This document shows positions 1 through 6,934 of a stretch of DNA of 6,934 nucleotides, piece by piece. The stretch is from positions 1 through 6,934 of the forward strand of contig JALOPK010000195.1 of NCBI GenBank assembly GCA_025453925.1, read 5' to 3'. This stretch comes from Candidatus Eiseniibacteriota bacterium (GTDB taxonomy: Bacteria > JAFGKV01). The translations under genes and the position numbers were made by a program. The notes under the pieces were generated by a model. That model did no database searches and was not told where the DNA came from. It saw nothing but the letters and a program-made list of their open reading frames with translations. The stretch's first letter is position 1; each line of letters opens with the position of its first letter.

Positions 1-633
1 GAGGCATTTGCACTCCACGCGTCGGGAAATGTCCTGGCTGACCTTCGAGTCTGCCGCGGCGATGTGGACGCCGCTTTCCGGGCGGCGGACGTGGTCATCG
101 AGAACACCTACCGAACCGGCTATCAGGAGCATGCCTATCTGGAGCCCCAGGGCGCAATCGCCGTGCCGGGTCCCGACAGACGCATGGTCGTGTACTCGAC
201 CTGTCAGTGCCCGTTCTACGTGCGCCGGGCGGTGGCCGATGTCCTCGGCTATCCTCTGACCAGGGTGCGCGTGATCCAGACCTGCACGGGAGGAGCCTTC
301 GGCGGCAAGGAAGACTATCCCTCGGAGGTGGCGGCGTGCGCCGCCCTCTTGGCGCTTGCCGCAAGCAGGCCGGTCAGACTCCTGTACGACCGCACGGAGG
401 ACTTCCGGTGGTCGTCGAAGCGTCATCGAACCCTCATCGCGCACCGGCTCGCTGCCCGTCTGGACGGCAGGATCCTGGCGATGCGGGTAGAGGCGGTTTA
501 TGACGCCGGCGCATACGCGGGCCTGAGCGTCGTGGTCGCCGAGCGCGGCAACAGCGCCGCGTGCGGTCCCTATGAACTTGCGGCCGTCGACGTGAGGACG
601 CGGATCGTCTACACTTCGGCGCTCCTCAGGTGA
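1..633 (+). CDS. Xanthine dehydrogenase-family molybdopterin-binding subunit, N-terminal piece (5' partial, frameshifted at its 3' end)
   Basis: This is the first visible part of a large molybdenum hydroxylase subunit (XdhA/CoxL-type, COG1529 family), which binds the molybdopterin cofactor and hydroxylates purines, related heterocycles or aldehydes. The frame is open from base 1, and the residues before the first ATG (position 64) already fit the family, so the true start lies upstream, probably 130-150 residues away. Recognisable blocks are VVIENTYRTGYQEHAYLEPQ (nt 91-150) and the cofactor-site glycine motif TGGAFGGKEDYPS (nt 286-324), followed by RPVRLLYDRTEDF and SSKRH. The EDYPS variant resembles the xanthine dehydrogenase branch more than CO dehydrogenase. 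After VRTRIVYT (ending near 614) the frame goes to TSALLR and a TGA at 631-633, whereas the family would continue with a GAFRGFG segment. The homology resumes in another frame from 615. The piece is therefore the front of one broken gene, not an independent protein. The exact substrate cannot be read from the sequence. Confidence 0.88.
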   Translation, partial: EAFALHASGNVLADLRVCRGDVDAAFRAADVVIENTYRTGYQEHAYLEPQGAIAVPGPDRRMVVYSTCQCPFYVRRAVADVLGYPLTRVRVIQTCTGGAFGGKEDYPSEVAACAALLALAASRPVRLLYDRTEDFRWSSKRHRTLIAHRLAARLDGRILAMRVEAVYDAGAYAGLSVVVAERGNSAACGPYELAAVDVRTRIVYTSALLR

Positions 634-635
634 CT
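605..635 (+). pseudogene. Lesion site joining the two pieces of the dehydrogenase gene
   Basis: In frame 1 the protein reads RIVYT up to about 614. In frame 3 it resumes at 615 with FGAPQVTFA. Members of this family have roughly ten residues of the form NTPPxGAFRG between these two points. The two halves join with the frame shifted by the loss of 3n+1 bases, about 31 if the loop has its usual length. The missing segment includes the Ala-Phe-Arg motif whose arginine (Arg880 in bovine xanthine oxidase) contacts substrate. The observation is a clean internal deletion, with no inserted sequence and no repeat at the junction that I can see. Whether it is a real mutation or an assembly error cannot be decided from one sequence. 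Confidence 0.75.
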
Positions 636-1826
636 TTTGCGACCGAGCGCCAGATCGACGAGCTTGCCCGGCGCATAGGGAAGGATCCCATCGCGCTGCG
701 AAGGATGAACCTGTGGCGGAGGGGGAGCGTTGCTGCATCGGGAGAAGTGCTCACCGGTGCGGTTGCCGCACGGAAGACCCTGCTCGAGGCGGCGCGGATG
801 TCTGGCTACGCGTCGAGACCCCCGTCAGTGCGGTCCGGCAGGGTGCTGAGAGGCATCGGTGTGGCCGCCAGCTACTACGGAAACAACCTGCACAAGGGGG
901 GCGAACGCCTCGATCGGTCACACGCCCTGGTGACGGTGAACGCGGATGGAAGCGTGAGCGTTCACGTCGGCTTGACAGAGATGGGCCAGGGGTTGCTCAC
1001 CGCGGTTGCGTTGATGGTTGCGGAGGACCTCGGCGCCCCGCATGACCGCGTCGTCGTGTCCCTTGTCGACACCGATGCGGTCCACGACAGCGGTCCGACC
1101 GTTGCATCGCGGGGAACTATCATGTCAGGCATGCCGGCCCGGAGGGCAGCGGCCGCACTGCGCCTCCGCATGCTCAAGGCCGCGCGCTCGCTTTTCCACC
1201 GAACGGATCTGGCGCTTTGGAGGGGGTACCTCGTGGTGCGCTCCACGAACGAGAGACTCCTGGCCTGGGACGGTTTGGTTGCGCAGTGCTACGCACAGCG
1301 GATCGAGATGACGTCCACCGGTTTCTACCGGCCGGCCGCGCGCCCGTACGATGCGACGACCGGGCAGGGCAGGCCCTATGCCACCAATTCCTACACCGCG
1401 CATGTCGCGGAGGTGGAGGTGCTGGCCGACACGGGCGAAGTACGGGTGCTCAGGGTGACGGCGGTGCACGACATTGGACGGGTGATTTTTCCCGACGGCG
1501 TGAGAGGGCAGATCGAGGGTGGGGTAGTTCAGGGCGCCGGGTTGGCGCTCTGGGAGGAACTCAAGACCGGCGCTGGATACGTGCAGAACCCCGGGTTCAC
1601 GGACTACGCCATACCGGGCATCGCCGATGCGCCGGAGGTCAGGTGGTCGGTGGTCGAGCAGCCGTGGCGCGGCGGACCGTTCGGTGCCAAGGGTATCGGA
1701 GAACCGTCCCTGATCGGCGTGCCGGCAGCCATTGCCAATGCGGTGAGCGACGCGATCGGCGTACCCGTGAGGGAGCTTCCTCTCACACCCGAACGCGTTC
1801 GACGGATGCTTGTCGCCTCCTCATAG
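630..1826 (+). CDS. Xanthine dehydrogenase-family molybdopterin-binding subunit, C-terminal piece
   Basis: This is the continuation of the same subunit in a different frame. Homology actually begins at 615 (FGAPQVTFATERQ), 15 bases before a GTG at 630 that could act as a start. That GTG overlaps the TGA of the upstream piece (GTGA), the geometry seen in translational coupling, but no Shine-Dalgarno precedes it. Counting from the GTG, family landmarks are: ID..A..IGKDPIALRR.N (residues 9-27), LTEMGQG (115-121), DSGPTVASRGT (153-163), GQGRPY..NSYTAHVAEVEVLADTGEV (245-271), QIEGGVVQG (294-302) and GAKGIGEPSLIG (352-363). The last holds the glutamate equivalent to the catalytic base of bovine xanthine oxidase (Glu1261). 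It ends normally at a TAG with the usual LPLTPERV tail. The rest of the sequence is well conserved, so the gene was broken recently or the break is a sequence error. No FAD or 2Fe-2S subunit gene follows it in the window; those may lie upstream. Confidence 0.87.
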   Translation: MTFATERQIDELARRIGKDPIALRRMNLWRRGSVAASGEVLTGAVAARKTLLEAARMSGYASRPPSVRSGRVLRGIGVAASYYGNNLHKGGERLDRSHALVTVNADGSVSVHVGLTEMGQGLLTAVALMVAEDLGAPHDRVVVSLVDTDAVHDSGPTVASRGTIMSGMPARRAAAALRLRMLKAARSLFHRTDLALWRGYLVVRSTNERLLAWDGLVAQCYAQRIEMTSTGFYRPAARPYDATTGQGRPYATNSYTAHVAEVEVLADTGEVRVLRVTAVHDIGRVIFPDGVRGQIEGGVVQGAGLALWEELKTGAGYVQNPGFTDYAIPGIADAPEVRWSVVEQPWRGGPFGAKGIGEPSLIGVPAAIANAVSDAIGVPVRELPLTPERVRRMLVASS

Positions 1827-2136: not shown

Positions 2137-2598
2137 ATGCCGACGGGCAGGGTGAAAGAGTTTCTGAATGCTCAGGGTGTCCGGTACATCTCGATCCATC
2201 ACTCGCCGGCCTACACTGCCCAGGAGGTGGCGGCGTCCGCTCACGTTCCCGGGAAGGAATTGGCGAAGACTGTGATGGTGAAACTGGACGGGCGCATGGC
2301 CATGGCCGTCCTGCCTGCCTCGTACAAGGTCGACTTCGGCGCCCTGGCTGCAGCGGCCGGTGTGTCAAAGGCAGAACTCGCCACGGAAGCCGAGTTCAAG
2401 GATCTCTTCCCGGAATGCGAGCTGGGGGCGATGCCGCCCTTTGGGAATCTTTACGGGATGGAGGTCTACGCCGCGAAACGACTGGCAGAGGACGCGGAAA
2501 TCGCCTTCAACGCCGGCACCCATCGCGAACTCATCCGTCTTCGGTACGAGGATTTTTCGCGCCTGGTCCATCCCCGGCTGGTCTCGTTCGCCCTCTAG
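2137..2598 (+). CDS. YbaK/EbsC (ProX-type) aminoacyl-tRNA deacylase
   Basis: This 153-residue protein is a stand-alone member of the YbaK/prolyl-tRNA synthetase-associated (INS-like) domain family. Characterised members work in the cytoplasm and hydrolyse mischarged tRNA, for example Cys- or Ala-tRNA(Pro), correcting errors of prolyl-tRNA synthetase. Visible family features are the N-terminal helix and strand (MPTGRVKEFLNAQGVRYISI), YTAQEVAASAHVPGKELAKTV (residues 26-46), whose Lys44 matches the conserved lysine essential in YbaK/ProX proteins, the strand MAMAVLPASYKVD, the GAMPPFGN loop (97-104) and FNAGTH (124-129), which ends the substrate pocket. The length equals the usual single-domain size, so it looks complete. 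Which mischarged tRNA it edits cannot be told from the sequence; YbaK, ProX and other subtypes share these motifs. It stands alone, 310 bases after the dehydrogenase gene and convergent with the next gene, so it is probably a single-gene transcript. The start is set by the strong ribosome binding site six bases upstream. Confidence 0.93.
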   Translation: MPTGRVKEFLNAQGVRYISIHHSPAYTAQEVAASAHVPGKELAKTVMVKLDGRMAMAVLPASYKVDFGALAAAAGVSKAELATEAEFKDLFPECELGAMPPFGNLYGMEVYAAKRLAEDAEIAFNAGTHRELIRLRYEDFSRLVHPRLVSFAL

Positions 2599-2650: not shown

Positions 2651-5600
2651 TCATCGAGTCAGCATGACGGAGTGGGCCCGGCGAAGGTTGCCGTCTCTCA
2701 CCACCCAGACATAGGGCCCAGAGGGAACCATCGCGCCTCGTTCGTCGAAGCCGTCCCAGTGCACGACATGTGTGCCGGACGTGAGCGTGCCCCGCAACAC
2801 ACGGCGAATCCGGCGGCCTGACAGGTCGAAGATGGCGACATCGACCGCAGAGGGTGCAGGCACATCGATGGACAGAGACGTGATGCCCCGGGAAGGATTG
2901 GGCGCGCTGTGCGAGATGGTGAAAACCGGGAGACTGCCGCCGGCCTGCGGATCGCGAGGGTCCTGACCGACCGGTACCGCCCCCTGTGCCCACGCCGCAC
3001 CCACCACGGCCGCGGTGTTCCCGTTTGGTGATCCATCGCAGAGCGAGTCACCCCATCCTTCGTTCATCCGCCAGTAGCCTGCAAGCGCCGGCTCATCCCC
3101 GTGGAGAGGCAGGTGCATTGCACTCCGGATTTCCTCCTCGGATCGCGCGACATGCCAGACCCGCACCTCATCGACGATGCCGTCGAACGTGTAGCTTCCG
3201 CTCTCTGTATTCCCAATGACAAGGTCCAGCGCGGCATTGTCTCTGATTGAGCCAGTGGGGGGATCTGAGTGCGTCAACTCCTGCCGTTCGCCTTCGATGT
3301 AGACTTCCAGCCCGGCCGTTGCATCGTATGCCGCTGCCACGTGCTGCCATCGGCCCAAGGTAATGGAGTTGATCGGAGTCGCCGATACCCGCGGCGGGCC
3401 GCTGGCGTTCTTGACAAGGAACAGCAAGCTGTGATCGTTGTACGTCGGCCCCTCTCCGTGCAGATAGAGTGCGAAGCTGGTCTTGTCAGCGATCCTGCCA
3501 TAGCCCAACGCGGAGGATTCCCCCCATCCGAGAGGCTTGATCACCGCCTCCAGCGTTACCGCTTCGGAGAAGGCCAGCGAGGGGGACGCAACGCAGGTTG
3601 CCGACCCGGAATGACCGTCGAACTCCAGTGCCGACTCTCCGTCGAATACCCTGATGCACCTCTCCACAGTGACATCGGCGGTGGATTGATCATTGGCGAT
3701 GGCCAGCGATACTGCATACTCGCCGGGAGTGTCATAGGTCCACAGGGGACTCTGCTGATCTGACTCTGGTGACCCGTCGCCATCCAGATCCCATGACCAG
3801 GTGGTTGCGGCCCCAAGGGATTGATCGTTGAACTGCACGGACAGGGGTGCATGGCCCGAGGAGGGCGTTGCGCTGAAGCGGGGCAGAAGCGTGGAGAGCT
3901 GGAAGGCCCACGCCTCACGCCCGGAGAACTCGGATTGGGCGTATCCTGCGATAGCCACCGCACCCGGCGCCGCGGCGATGGCATTGCCCCACCGCACCTG
4001 ATCGCCGCCGATGACCTTCCGCCAGAGTTCGGCGCCGTCGAGGTCCATTGCCACGACGTATGCGTCGGTGCGCATCGTGACCGCGTCCGTTGTCGCACCG
4101 GCCAAAACCAGCGCGCCGTCCGCGTAGACCAGCGACCGGGCGTGATCCTGCAACGGATTCTCCCCGTACCGCCTGCGCCAAAGCTCTGTGCCCACCGGAT
4201 CCGTGCGGATCACGAAGGCGCAGAGAAGATCCCCGGCGGTGCTCGGTATCGGCCTATCGCTCACTCCCGCGACGACATAGCCGCCGTCCGGCGTTTCAAC
4301 CACCGCATGCCCCTCGTCCATGGCCGCCTCCGGCGCACCGCTCACCCCATCGTAGACTCGGGACCACTGCTCCATGCCGTCGGCGCTCAGCTTGAGCAGC
4401 CAGACATCCCTATTCGCAGCGCCGGAACCGCCGGTGGAGGCGGCGATCACGTAGCCGCCCTCGCTGGTCACGGAGACGGCACCGCCCATTTCGGAGCTGG
4501 CGCTTCCGATGAGCTTCGTCCACAGCTCATTGCCGTCTGCATCCGTCTTCACGAGGTAGAGGTCGTCCTCTCCTGCGCCGAAGGATTCGGTATGGCCAAG
4601 GACCATGACGTTCCCGTCGGCGTCCTGCACGACGGAGGCGGCCAGGTCCATGCCGGATCCGCCGAATGTCCGTGACCACAGCTCATTGCCGGATTCATCC
4701 ACCTTCAGCAAAAGCATGTCCTTGCCGCCGGCGCCTGCCGACGTGGTGCTGCCCGCGATCAGGTACCCTCCGCCCTGTGCGGGGCATATCGTTGTTCCAG
4801 CTTCCCAGCCGGGGCCGCCATAGACCCTCGACCAGAGCACCTCCCCCTCGGAGTTCAAGAGGCCAAGGTATACGTCGGACATGCCAGCGCCTTGGGAGTA
4901 CGTGAGGCCGACTACCGCGAACCCTCCACCTGTTGCAGGACAGATACCCAGTGCGACATCCTCTCCGCTCCCTCCGAACATGGTCGACCAGATGGCGTCG
5001 TCCCGGCTACGCGCAGCGCGGTCGTCCAGATGAAGCCAGGCGCGGCGGGCGACGACATTTCTGTCGTGGCTCTGCTCCAGGGCGCGGGCCACTGCGTTGC
5101 TGTTCTGTTGGTGGTAGTAGCGGCCTCGGGTGCACGTGACGATGGTGCCATCCACCACAGGGTAGTGGTTTCCCCCTACGAAGGTTGCTCCCGCGGCTTC
5201 GTACTCGCCCTGATACGTAGCGCTCCCGGTGACGTTGATGCCGTCCAACACGTCTGCCGCCGCAAGCACCCGAACTGACGCACACCACGCGGCAAGCACG
5301 ATCCCCGAGTCTGCGGCCGTGTGGATGAGATCCAATGCGTGTTGGCTTTGCAGGAGATCCTGGGCGGGTGGGGTGCCGGCCTGGGCCGATGACATAATGG
5401 CCACCACATCGTAGGCAGTGATATCCGTGATGTCCTCAAGCAGAATGTCAACGCCGATGGGCGGGCACCCGACAGGGTCAGCAAAGCTCCCGCAGGAGGC
5501 TATCGTGTCGGCTGTCCCGGCCGTCGTGATGTGCCAGCCGAACCGTCTGAAGTCGTTCAAATAGAAGAGCGCGTTGGCACCGTAGTTCTGAGGGAAGATG

Positions 5601-5680
5601 ACCAGGGCATCCACCGAGTCATGGGCATCCACGATCGCGGGGGTGAGGACGAAGAGCGTGAGCAGGGTCAGACGGAGCAT
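2651..5680 (-). CDS. Secreted multidomain protein: DJ-1/PfpI-like, seven-repeat beta-propeller, PKD, LamG-like, FlgD/sorting-like C-terminus
   Basis: A 1009-residue exported protein of unknown role. Residues 1-19 are a Sec signal peptide with a hydrophobic core and probable cleavage after VDA; no lipobox cysteine follows. Residues about 22-205 resemble a DJ-1/PfpI (class I glutamine amidotransferase-like) fold: DALVIFPQNYG opening strand, a nucleophile-elbow-like AWCAS with Cys133, then VLAAADVLDGINVTG and VVDGTIVTCTRGRY. The usual acidic residue of the first loop appears replaced (Asn36 by my alignment), so enzyme activity is uncertain. Residues about 229-597 are seven propeller-like repeats. 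Residues 600-680 form a PKD domain (FSATPSSGHAPLSVQFND, WSWDLDGDG, YDTPGEYAVSL). Residues 682-900 look like a LamG/concanavalin-type jellyroll (LEFDGHSGS, ITLGRWQHVAAAYD, FDGIVDEVRVWHVARSEEEI). Residues 918-1009 match FlgD-Ig/type IX-like sorting tails (APNPSRG, IFDLSGRRIRR, SGTHVVHWDG, VPSGPYVW). It is likely anchored or released at the cell surface and may bind glycans or protein; that is inference. GGGAGGA (5685-5691) supports the start. Confidence 0.9.
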   Translation of the reverse strand: MLRLTLLTLFVLTPAIVDAHDSVDALVIFPQNYGANALFYLNDFRRFGWHITTAGTADTIASCGSFADPVGCPPIGVDILLEDITDITAYDVVAIMSSAQAGTPPAQDLLQSQHALDLIHTAADSGIVLAAWCASVRVLAAADVLDGINVTGSATYQGEYEAAGATFVGGNHYPVVDGTIVTCTRGRYYHQQNSNAVARALEQSHDRNVVARRAWLHLDDRAARSRDDAIWSTMFGGSGEDVALGICPATGGGFAVVGLTYSQGAGMSDVYLGLLNSEGEVLWSRVYGGPGWEAGTTICPAQGGGYLIAGSTTSAGAGGKDMLLLKVDESGNELWSRTFGGSGMDLAASVVQDADGNVMVLGHTESFGAGEDDLYLVKTDADGNELWTKLIGSASSEMGGAVSVTSEGGYVIAASTGGSGAANRDVWLLKLSADGMEQWSRVYDGVSGAPEAAMDEGHAVVETPDGGYVVAGVSDRPIPSTAGDLLCAFVIRTDPVGTELWRRRYGENPLQDHARSLVYADGALVLAGATTDAVTMRTDAYVVAMDLDGAELWRKVIGGDQVRWGNAIAAAPGAVAIAGYAQSEFSGREAWAFQLSTLLPRFSATPSSGHAPLSVQFNDQSLGAATTWSWDLDGDGSPESDQQSPLWTYDTPGEYAVSLAIANDQSTADVTVERCIRVFDGESALEFDGHSGSATCVASPSLAFSEAVTLEAVIKPLGWGESSALGYGRIADKTSFALYLHGEGPTYNDHSLLFLVKNASGPPRVSATPINSITLGRWQHVAAAYDATAGLEVYIEGERQELTHSDPPTGSIRDNAALDLVIGNTESGSYTFDGIVDEVRVWHVARSEEEIRSAMHLPLHGDEPALAGYWRMNEGWGDSLCDGSPNGNTAAVVGAAWAQGAVPVGQDPRDPQAGGSLPVFTISHSAPNPSRGITSLSIDVPAPSAVDVAIFDLSGRRIRRVLRGTLTSGTHVVHWDGFDERGAMVPSGPYVWVVRDGNLRRAHSVMLTR
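3890..4996 (-). repeat. Seven propeller-like protein repeats of 52 residues (156-base period)
   Basis: Within the secreted protein, each unit begins with a tryptophan in a [LIQ]W motif, usually LW or LWSR. It is followed by a [YF]GG-type turn, then a GG[GY]-[FY]-hydrophobic-AG strand, a DxYLxK-like strand and a DxxGxE turn. The tryptophans fall at residues 231, 283, 335, 387, 439, 501 and 553. The spacing is exactly 52 residues five times, 62 once (a ten-residue insertion in the fifth unit) and 52 again. Seven units fit a closed seven-bladed beta-propeller. Units 1 and 2 are especially alike (both have ICPA then GGG[FY]), suggesting later duplication. The repeats are diverged at DNA level. 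Confidence 0.8.
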
Positions 5681-5684
5681 TGTG

Positions 5685-5691
5685 TCCTCCC
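5685..5691 (-). promoter_or_regulatory. Ribosome binding site of the secreted multidomain protein
   Basis: On the minus strand GGGAGGA ends four bases before the ATG at 5680-5678. It is a good match to the anti-Shine-Dalgarno and, with the signal peptide that follows directly, fixes the start. Confidence 0.8.
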
Positions 5692-6073: not shown

Positions 6074-6934
6074 TTACTGCACCTCACGGATGATGGTCGT
6101 CCACTGCACCGCGGCCCCGCGCGCGGTTACTTGGAGCGTGGATGTGGCAGTCCGCTGTTCGAAGGCGGAGGAGAACCACCCGGATAGGGGGGAGAGACTG
6201 CCGTGATGCAGGGCCAGACTCCCCGGGCCGGTGATCTCCATCCGGAGTGTGTTCGCGCCCATCGTGAGCATGGCGATCGTACCATCAAGCGTCGCAATCG
6301 TCCAGGATGGATGGAGATGCCAATGCAGCCGGGCAGTGAATGCGGCGCGTCCACAGACCCTGTCTTCGATTTCCAGTCCGGCACACGAGAGACGCACGCG
6401 CCTAACATGCCGAACCCGTTGCGGCAGCCGCAGGTAACCATCGTGACGCCCTCGCGCCTCGAAGCCCCGGGAGCTGGGCATCCGTTCCGCATGACACGAG
6501 TATGGAGCACGCCAGGCAAAGTCGCTCTCCGGAAGGGATTGGCTTACCTCCTCAACCTCCACCGTGGAATGGGCCGCGGTCGACCGGAAGTAGTCACGCC
6601 ATGGCTGCTCCGCGTAGGAGTAGGTTCCCGGATCAACAATGACCGGCAGGCCGCGGAACCAGAGCGCAATGCTCAACGCATGGGCATGGCCGTGCCCGCA
6701 GGCCGGCGGGAGCCCCAGGCGTCCCGCGGCGAACAGCAGAGCGAAGGAGCCTCGATCGGCCAGTACGAACGAACGGGTCCAGAGATCCCCGTCCGGGGTC
6801 GGAGCGTCGGCAGGGCGACGGTCTCTCACCACAGAGGTCTCGTACGTGCTTCCGGACCGTGCGGACGCGGGGAATGAGCGGAGTGGCGGCACGCCCTCCC
6901 CCCACCGCATCAGCGCGTGTGCCCGCCCGCTCGG
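6074..6934 (-). CDS. Heparinase II/III family polysaccharide lyase, C-terminal part (5' partial at the window edge)
   Basis: The visible 286 codons are the C-terminal half of a heparinase II/III-like protein, a family that cleaves uronic-acid-containing polysaccharides by beta-elimination and often sits in exopolysaccharide gene clusters. The frame stays open through the right edge, with RAHALMRWGEG across the ATG at 6910. That ATG has no family support as a start, so the N-terminal alpha-barrel domain lies outside the window. Counting from that Met, the core is CGHGHAHALS (71-80), VDPGTYSY (92-99), YFRSTAAHSTVEVE (107-120) and an SDFAW element (129-133). By comparison with Pedobacter heparinase II, these carry the histidines of the HxH motif, the tyrosine and aspartate of DPGTY, and the final zinc-type histidine (His114). 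The aspartate commonly found after the HxH motif (GHGHAD) is His77 here. The rest is a beta-sandwich ending at a TAA. Substrate is unknown. Confidence 0.88.
   Translation of the reverse strand, partial: PSGRAHALMRWGEGVPPLRSFPASARSGSTYETSVVRDRRPADAPTPDGDLWTRSFVLADRGSFALLFAAGRLGLPPACGHGHAHALSIALWFRGLPVIVDPGTYSYAEQPWRDYFRSTAAHSTVEVEEVSQSLPESDFAWRAPYSCHAERMPSSRGFEARGRHDGYLRLPQRVRHVRRVRLSCAGLEIEDRVCGRAAFTARLHWHLHPSWTIATLDGTIAMLTMGANTLRMEITGPGSLALHHGSLSPLSGWFSSAFEQRTATSTLQVTARGAAVQWTTIIREVQ

What the first reader, a model, noticed from the sequence alone, without database searches (positions are those of the whole stretch)
2651..5680. Unusual architecture: exported DJ-1/PfpI-like domain fused to a propeller, PKD, LamG-like and sorting-like domain
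DJ-1/PfpI-like domains are mostly cytoplasmic single-domain proteins. Here one follows a signal peptide directly and is joined to surface-adhesion-type modules. It keeps a cysteine at the nucleophile elbow (AWCAS, Cys133), but the acidic partner of the first loop seems to be Asn36, which suggests a binding or sensing role, or altered chemistry. I know of no named family with this domain order.
Basis: partly seen in the sequence, partly recalled or inferred. Interest (0 to 1): 0.6.

Follow-up and report, generated by a model that had tools for sequence, protein, structure and literature searches.

The report
Exported DJ-1-like domain on propeller
This uncultured bacterium makes a large cell-surface protein that starts with a relative of the Parkinson's-linked protein DJ-1, but with the defining glutamate swapped for asparagine and an extra cysteine added, and the same arrangement recurs in at least four bacterial phyla, so it looks like an undescribed surface protein family rather than a chance fusion.

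Summary
The 1,009-aa minus-strand ORF at 2651-5680 has a signal peptide, a DJ-1/PfpI domain (Pfam E 2.6e-10), a seven-bladed propeller (AlphaFold pTM 0.83), PKD, LamG and a FlgD-Ig/T9SS-type tail. The order is not unique. I found ten such DJ-1 domains in six genomes of four phyla. Eight sit in one reading frame with the propeller. One (G060, L022) is cut from most of it by an in-frame TGA. One (G314) is a separate exported protein encoded directly next to a propeller-PKD-LamG-tail protein. The sorting tail occurs only in genomes with a T9SS SprA homologue.

The DJ-1 domains form one clade (support 1.0). Cys133 is kept in 10/10. The Glu found in 37/37 ordinary DJ-1 proteins is Asn in 10/10, the preceding acidic position is Gly, the oxyanion Gly-Gly is lost, and a second cysteine (Cys63) plus Trp49 and Tyr160 are invariant. 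DJ-1 glyoxalase/hydrolase chemistry is therefore unlikely.

Most likely it is a surface-anchored module whose DJ-1 domain acts through a Cys133/Asn36 site, perhaps paired with Cys63, at the interface with a CylK-like propeller. The chemistry is inferred; no confident DJ-1 structure could be computed.

The parts
2651..5680 (-). Complete ORF of the multidomain exported protein, 1009 aa; ribosome-binding-like GGGAGG at 5686-5691
   Evidence: relatives collinear
5624..5680 (-). Signal peptide, residues 1-19 (MLRLTLLTLFVLTPAIVDA)
   Evidence: read from sequence; N-terminal hydrophobic export signals also in the relatives, one with a lipobox
5066..5617 (-). DJ-1/PfpI-superfamily domain, residues 22-205
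   Evidence: Pfam PF01965 E 2.6e-10; family profile matches AtDJ-1D, YhbO, PfpI, InhA in the PDB
5573..5575 (-). Asn36, in the place of the DJ-1 Glu18 partner; invariant in 10/10 family members, Glu in 37/37 ordinary DJ-1 proteins
5492..5494 (-). Cys63, second invariant cysteine in a loop with no counterpart in ordinary DJ-1 proteins
5282..5284 (-). Cys133, nucleophile-elbow cysteine; invariant
3884..5008 (-). Seven-bladed beta-propeller, residues 225-599, CylK-like
   Evidence: AF2 model, Foldseek, phmmer to CylK
3662..3874 (-). PKD domain, residues 603-673
3128..3601 (-). LamG (Laminin_G_3, concanavalin-like) domain, residues 694-851
2654..2902 (-). C-terminal FlgD-Ig / T9SS type-A-like sorting tail, residues 927-1009
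   Evidence: SprA_N present in the same genome

Best explanation
It is a surface-displayed protein of a so far unnamed family. Shown by sequence: it carries an export signal; its tail and the SprA gene in the same genome fit type IX secretion; the conserved core is an exported DJ-1-type domain joined to a seven-bladed CylK-like propeller, with PKD, LamG and sorting tail as the usual but optional C-terminal equipment. Inferred: PKD works as a spacer and LamG as a carbohydrate or protein binder that hold the protein at the surface or on a substrate. Inferred: the DJ-1 domain packs on the propeller's top face as the N-terminal domain does in CylK, and works through Cys133 in a rebuilt pocket, with Asn36 instead of Glu and with Cys63, Trp49 and Tyr160. 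Without the glutamate and the oxyanion Gly-Gly it should not act as a DJ-1 glyoxalase, deglycase or hydrolase. The most likely role is a thiol-dependent surface function: either a Cys133/Cys63 dithiol that senses or reacts with oxidants or reactive sulfur, or covalent/specific capture of a ligand by Cys133.
For: Domain calls. Ten DJ-1 domains in six genomes of four phyla, forming one clade with support 1.0. DJ-1+propeller in one frame in eight of ten. G314 encodes the DJ-1 domain and the propeller-PKD-LamG-tail as two adjacent exported proteins in overlapping open frames. G390 keeps only DJ-1+propeller behind a lipobox, and it and G079 lack both SprA and the tail, while the four tail-bearing genomes have SprA (0 of 14 control genomes have SprA_N). 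Asn36, Cys63, Cys133 invariant 10/10; Glu and Gly-Gly 37/37 in ordinary DJ-1. Three members (L021, L023, L024) have exactly these two cysteines in the domain. E18Q, E18A and E15A abolish human DJ-1 cPGA hydrolase, and G74/G75 are assigned to the oxyanion hole (PMC12135873). CylK's active site lies between its N-terminal domain and the top face of its propeller (PMC8916777), and CylK is the best match of this propeller.
Against: No activity, ligand or partner is known. No confident model of the DJ-1 domain could be made, so the Cys63-Cys133 distance and the DJ-1/propeller contact are unseen. No conserved neighbouring genes point to a pathway. The one organism with a public name, G001, is a candidate Fermentibacterota genome; the lifestyle is unknown from these data, so an oxidant-sensing role is a guess. 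Asn at this place in human DJ-1 (E18N) is reported to favour Cys106 oxidation and the sulfinic form (PMC6089991), which does not by itself imply a disulfide switch.
Confidence: 0.45

Rival explanations
1. The DJ-1 domain is catalytically dead and serves as a dimerisation or structural cap on the propeller, as the Hsp31-derived C-terminal domain stabilises large catalases; Cys63 and Cys133 would form a structural disulfide of an exported protein.
For: Glu, first acid and oxyanion Gly-Gly all lost; exported location favours disulfides; precedent of an Hsp31-derived fused domain giving stability and chaperone activity (PMC9137513).
Against: Dead domains usually lose the nucleophile; here Cys133 and the surrounding CxxxRVLAAA elbow and the YGxN loop are among the best conserved parts across four phyla.
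Confidence: 0.3
2. It is still a DJ-1-type enzyme (glyoxalase/deglycase or amidase-like) moved outside the cell, with Asn36 doing the glutamate's job.
For: Superfamily profile and Cys kept; closest solved relatives by profile include AtDJ-1D and YhbO.
Against: E18Q, E18A and E15A abolish cPGA hydrolase in human DJ-1, and E18 is reported essential for its methylglyoxalase activity (PMC12135873); the family lacks E15, E18 and Gly-Gly counterparts, and the His next to Cys of PfpI types.
Confidence: 0.12
3. The fusion is a MAG assembly artefact or a one-off gene fusion.
For: Window is a 6.9 kb contig of a draft genome with 502 contigs.
Against: Same order in a second species (79% identity in the DJ-1 domain), an own-genome paralogue and a 5.0 Mb single-contig genome of another phylum with four copies.
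Confidence: 0.01

Closest known systems
DJ-1/PfpI superfamily (Pfam PF01965; AtDJ-1D, YhbO, PH1704 PfpI, human DJ-1, isonitrile hydratase InhA)
   Same: Domain profile, elbow cysteine, conserved D-G and T of the strand near the C-terminus, Ala-Gly turn before it
   Different: Exported and fused to a propeller; Glu to Asn, first acid to Gly, oxyanion Gly-Gly replaced by an insertion, extra invariant Cys63, no PfpI-type His after Cys
CylK/BrtB-type enzymes (N-terminal Ca2+ domain + seven-bladed propeller)
   Same: Propeller: E about 1e-26 by sequence, TM 0.78 by Foldseek on the query; a different domain sits N-terminal to it
   Different: N-terminal domain is DJ-1-like, not a Ca2+ beta-roll; CylK catalytic residues were not mapped; cyanobacterial biosynthesis, not surface display
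T9SS cargo adhesins with PKD, LamG, TSP3, dockerin and type A sorting domains
   Same: C-terminal half of the protein and its G060 relatives; SprA homologue in the genome
   Different: No paper found that describes one beginning with a DJ-1 domain
Hsp31-derived C-terminal domain of large-size catalases
   Same: DJ-1-superfamily domain fused to an unrelated module (PMC9137513)
   Different: Other end of the protein and no surface modules

Membership tests
DJ-1/PfpI superfamily (fold and homology) | Significant profile match to PF01965 above the gathering score | tested here: met
   40.8 bits against cut-off 26.6; the seven relatives tested with their DJ-1 part likewise
DJ-1/PfpI superfamily (fold and homology) | Elbow cysteine in the conserved strand-turn-helix | tested here: met
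   Cys133 aligned to Cys of YhbO, AtDJ-1D and 37/37 ordinary DJ-1 ORFs; geometry not seen because of the poor model
DJ-1/PfpI enzymes (glyoxalase/deglycase/hydrolase class) | Acidic residue (Glu18 in human DJ-1) hydrogen-bonded to the cysteine | tested here: not met
   Glu 37/37 in ordinary DJ-1, Asn 10/10 in this family; no acidic residue from 33 to 41 in the window protein, so independent of register
DJ-1/PfpI enzymes (glyoxalase/deglycase/hydrolase class) | Oxyanion Gly-Gly (G74-G75 in human DJ-1) | tested here: not met
   Gly-Gly 37/37 in ordinary DJ-1; family has an insertion there and no conserved Gly pair
DJ-1/PfpI enzymes (glyoxalase/deglycase/hydrolase class) | Turnover of methylglyoxal, glycated amino acids or cPGA | not testable with these tools
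   needs purified protein
CylK-type alkylating enzymes | Seven-bladed propeller of the CylK type | tested here: met
CylK-type alkylating enzymes | N-terminal Ca2+-binding beta-roll domain carrying Arg105 | tested here: not met
   the N-terminal domain is DJ-1-like
T9SS cargo | Signal peptide plus C-terminal sorting domain | tested here: inconclusive
   Tail matches FlgD_ig above cut-off, but TIGR04183 just below (20.4 vs 23 bits); relatives in G060 pass Por_Secre_tail
T9SS cargo | T9SS outer-membrane translocon (SprA) in the same genome | tested here: met
   SprA_N 66.6 bits in G000, 0 of 14 control genomes

The most novel reading that the evidence does not exclude
An undescribed class of cell-surface thiol protein: an exported DJ-1 fold with a Cys-Asn(-Cys) site in place of the Cys-Glu site, built against the top face of a CylK-like propeller, performing a redox or covalent-capture reaction outside the cell.
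Probability: 0.3. Interest if true: 0.65.

Novelty: new variant of a known kind. Interest (0 to 1): 0.5.

Why it matters
The glutamate next to the DJ-1 cysteine is the residue studied to explain cysteine reactivity in the human protein, and it is present in all 37 ordinary DJ-1 proteins compared here. This is a natural clade, spread over four phyla, in which that residue is always Asn while the cysteine is always kept. It gives ready-made proteins for testing what the Asn does to the cysteine, and it adds a DJ-1-type domain to the known repertoire of bacterial surface modules.

Tried and rejected
AlphaFold of residues 22-213 with the two sequences allowed (window and L019): pLDDT 44, not interpretable, not searched further. 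Viral contigs: no relative. Papers on secreted DJ-1/PfpI proteins with propeller, PKD or T9SS: none relevant. Assembly artefact: rejected, since the order recurs in independent genomes. PfpI-type Cys-His protease reading: rejected, residue 134 is A/S/Q/P in the family and His in 27/37 ordinary proteins. Human DJ-1 Cys46 as the counterpart of Cys63: considered from memory, not adopted, because in the alignment Cys63 falls in a gap of the ordinary proteins (34/37). Conserved operon: none seen around the relatives, beyond the G314 pair. Promoter scan uninformative.

Full report
WHAT IS THERE. The minus strand of 2651-5680 encodes 1009 aa from an ATG with GGGAGG 5 nt upstream. Pfam finds, all above the curated cut-offs, DJ-1_PfpI (43-184), PKD (603-673), Laminin_G_3 (694-851) and FlgD_ig (935-993). 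The NCBIfam T9SS type A tail matches at 20.4 bits against a cut-off of 23. Residues 1-19 are a plain signal peptide by eye. Residues 225-599 contain seven WSRxxGG...DGGY...KTDxxGNELW repeats; AlphaFold gives 28 strands, pLDDT 79, pTM 0.83, and the best solved match is the CylK propeller, E 3e-18, well ahead of the next match at 2e-8.

IT IS A FAMILY. A profile of the DJ-1 domain (A1) found strong matches only in G000 (two), G001, G060 (four), G079, G314 and G390, six genomes of four phyla, among several hundred genomes searched (5 of 386 in each of two overlapping samples). In G000, G001 and G060 the order is export signal, DJ-1, propeller, PKD, LamG, tail; two G060 copies read this way to the end with thrombospondin-3 and/or dockerin modules inserted before the tail, a third (L022) is interrupted by an in-frame TGA, and the fourth (L023) runs into masked N bases within the PKD domain. 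G079 has DJ-1 and propeller with another C-terminus. G390 has a lipobox, DJ-1 and propeller only, 636 aa. In G314 an exported 216-aa DJ-1 protein is followed, with overlapping open frames, by an exported propeller-PKD-LamG-tail protein of about 800 aa. Fused in most genomes and adjacent but separate in one is a classical sign that the two parts work together (inference).

EXPORT ROUTE. SprA_N, the T9SS translocon marker, is found in G000, G001, G002, G060 and G314, not in G079 or G390, and in none of 14 control genomes. Of the six genomes with a family member, the four with SprA are those whose propeller protein ends in the sorting-type tail; the two without SprA lack the tail. The agreement supports surface delivery by T9SS where available and, in G390, lipid anchoring instead.

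THE ACTIVE SITE. In an alignment of the ten family domains with 37 ordinary DJ-1/PfpI ORFs from other genomes: Cys133 is Cys in 10/10 and 37/37. Position 36 is Asn in 10/10 and Glu in 37/37. Position 34 is Gly in 10/10 and Asp/Glu in 34/37. The Gly-Gly pair after the central strand is 37/37 in ordinary proteins and replaced by an insertion in the family. Position 134, His in 27/37, is A/S/Q/P. Cys63 and Tyr160 are invariant in the family and absent from the ordinary proteins; Trp49 is invariant in the family and found in 1/37. L021, L023 and L024 have exactly two cysteines in the domain, the counterparts of 63 and 133. The register at position 36 is uncertain by one residue in the HMMER alignment to YhbO, but the window protein has no acidic residue from 33 to 41, so the loss of the acid does not depend on it. 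FastTree groups all ten with support 1.0 on a long stem (1.25). In human DJ-1, E18Q, E18A and E15A abolish cPGA hydrolysis, E18 is reported essential for methylglyoxalase activity, and G74/G75 are assigned to the oxyanion hole (PMC12135873). E18N is reported to enhance Cys106 oxidation (PMC6089991). The family therefore lacks the known determinants of DJ-1 hydrolytic chemistry, yet keeps the cysteine.

HOW IT MAY WORK. Shown: multidomain, one clade, rebuilt pocket, export signals. Inferred: the DJ-1 domain sits on the propeller as the N-terminal domain of CylK does, where the active site lies between the two (PMC8916777); the function depends on Cys133, possibly paired with Cys63; PKD and LamG position the protein. 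Rivals are a dead structural or dimerisation cap with a disulfide, and a relocated ordinary DJ-1 enzyme, the latter unlikely.

LIMITS. The DJ-1 domain could not be modelled: only the window and L019 could be submitted, and pLDDT was 44. Signal peptides were judged by eye. The literature library is open-access only, so absence of a paper is weak evidence of novelty.

VERDICT. A real, conserved, apparently undescribed architecture with a remodelled DJ-1 site: a new variant of a known kind, interest 0.5.

Noticed in passing
window 1-1826 (+): A molybdopterin-binding (xanthine dehydrogenase-type) large subunit is split into two ORFs overlapping at 630-633, MoCoBD_1 matching across both: a frameshift, pseudogene or assembly error.
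   Followed up: no
window 6074-6934 (-): Partial heparinase II/III C-terminal domain protein (E 1.2e-39), running off the contig, upstream of the DJ-1 gene on the same strand with a 393-bp gap.
   Followed up: no
window 2137-2598 (+): YbaK-like aminoacyl-tRNA editing protein, convergent with the DJ-1 gene.
   Followed up: no
L022 5331-5561 (-) in G060: The third G060 copy is interrupted by an in-frame TGA within the propeller; the frame is open on both sides.
   Followed up: partly
L007: A stand-alone DJ-1/PfpI protein of another genome carries a clear N-terminal signal peptide; together with L011, L014 and L015 it is the nearest ordinary branch to this family in the tree.
   Followed up: partly
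G390, many contigs: About 30 propeller matches of the same type in one genome, so the propeller module is common there and used in many proteins.
   Followed up: no
G000:C489:5561-6046 (+): The window's own genome also encodes an ordinary DJ-1_PfpI protein, strong match E 1.1e-37.
   Followed up: no
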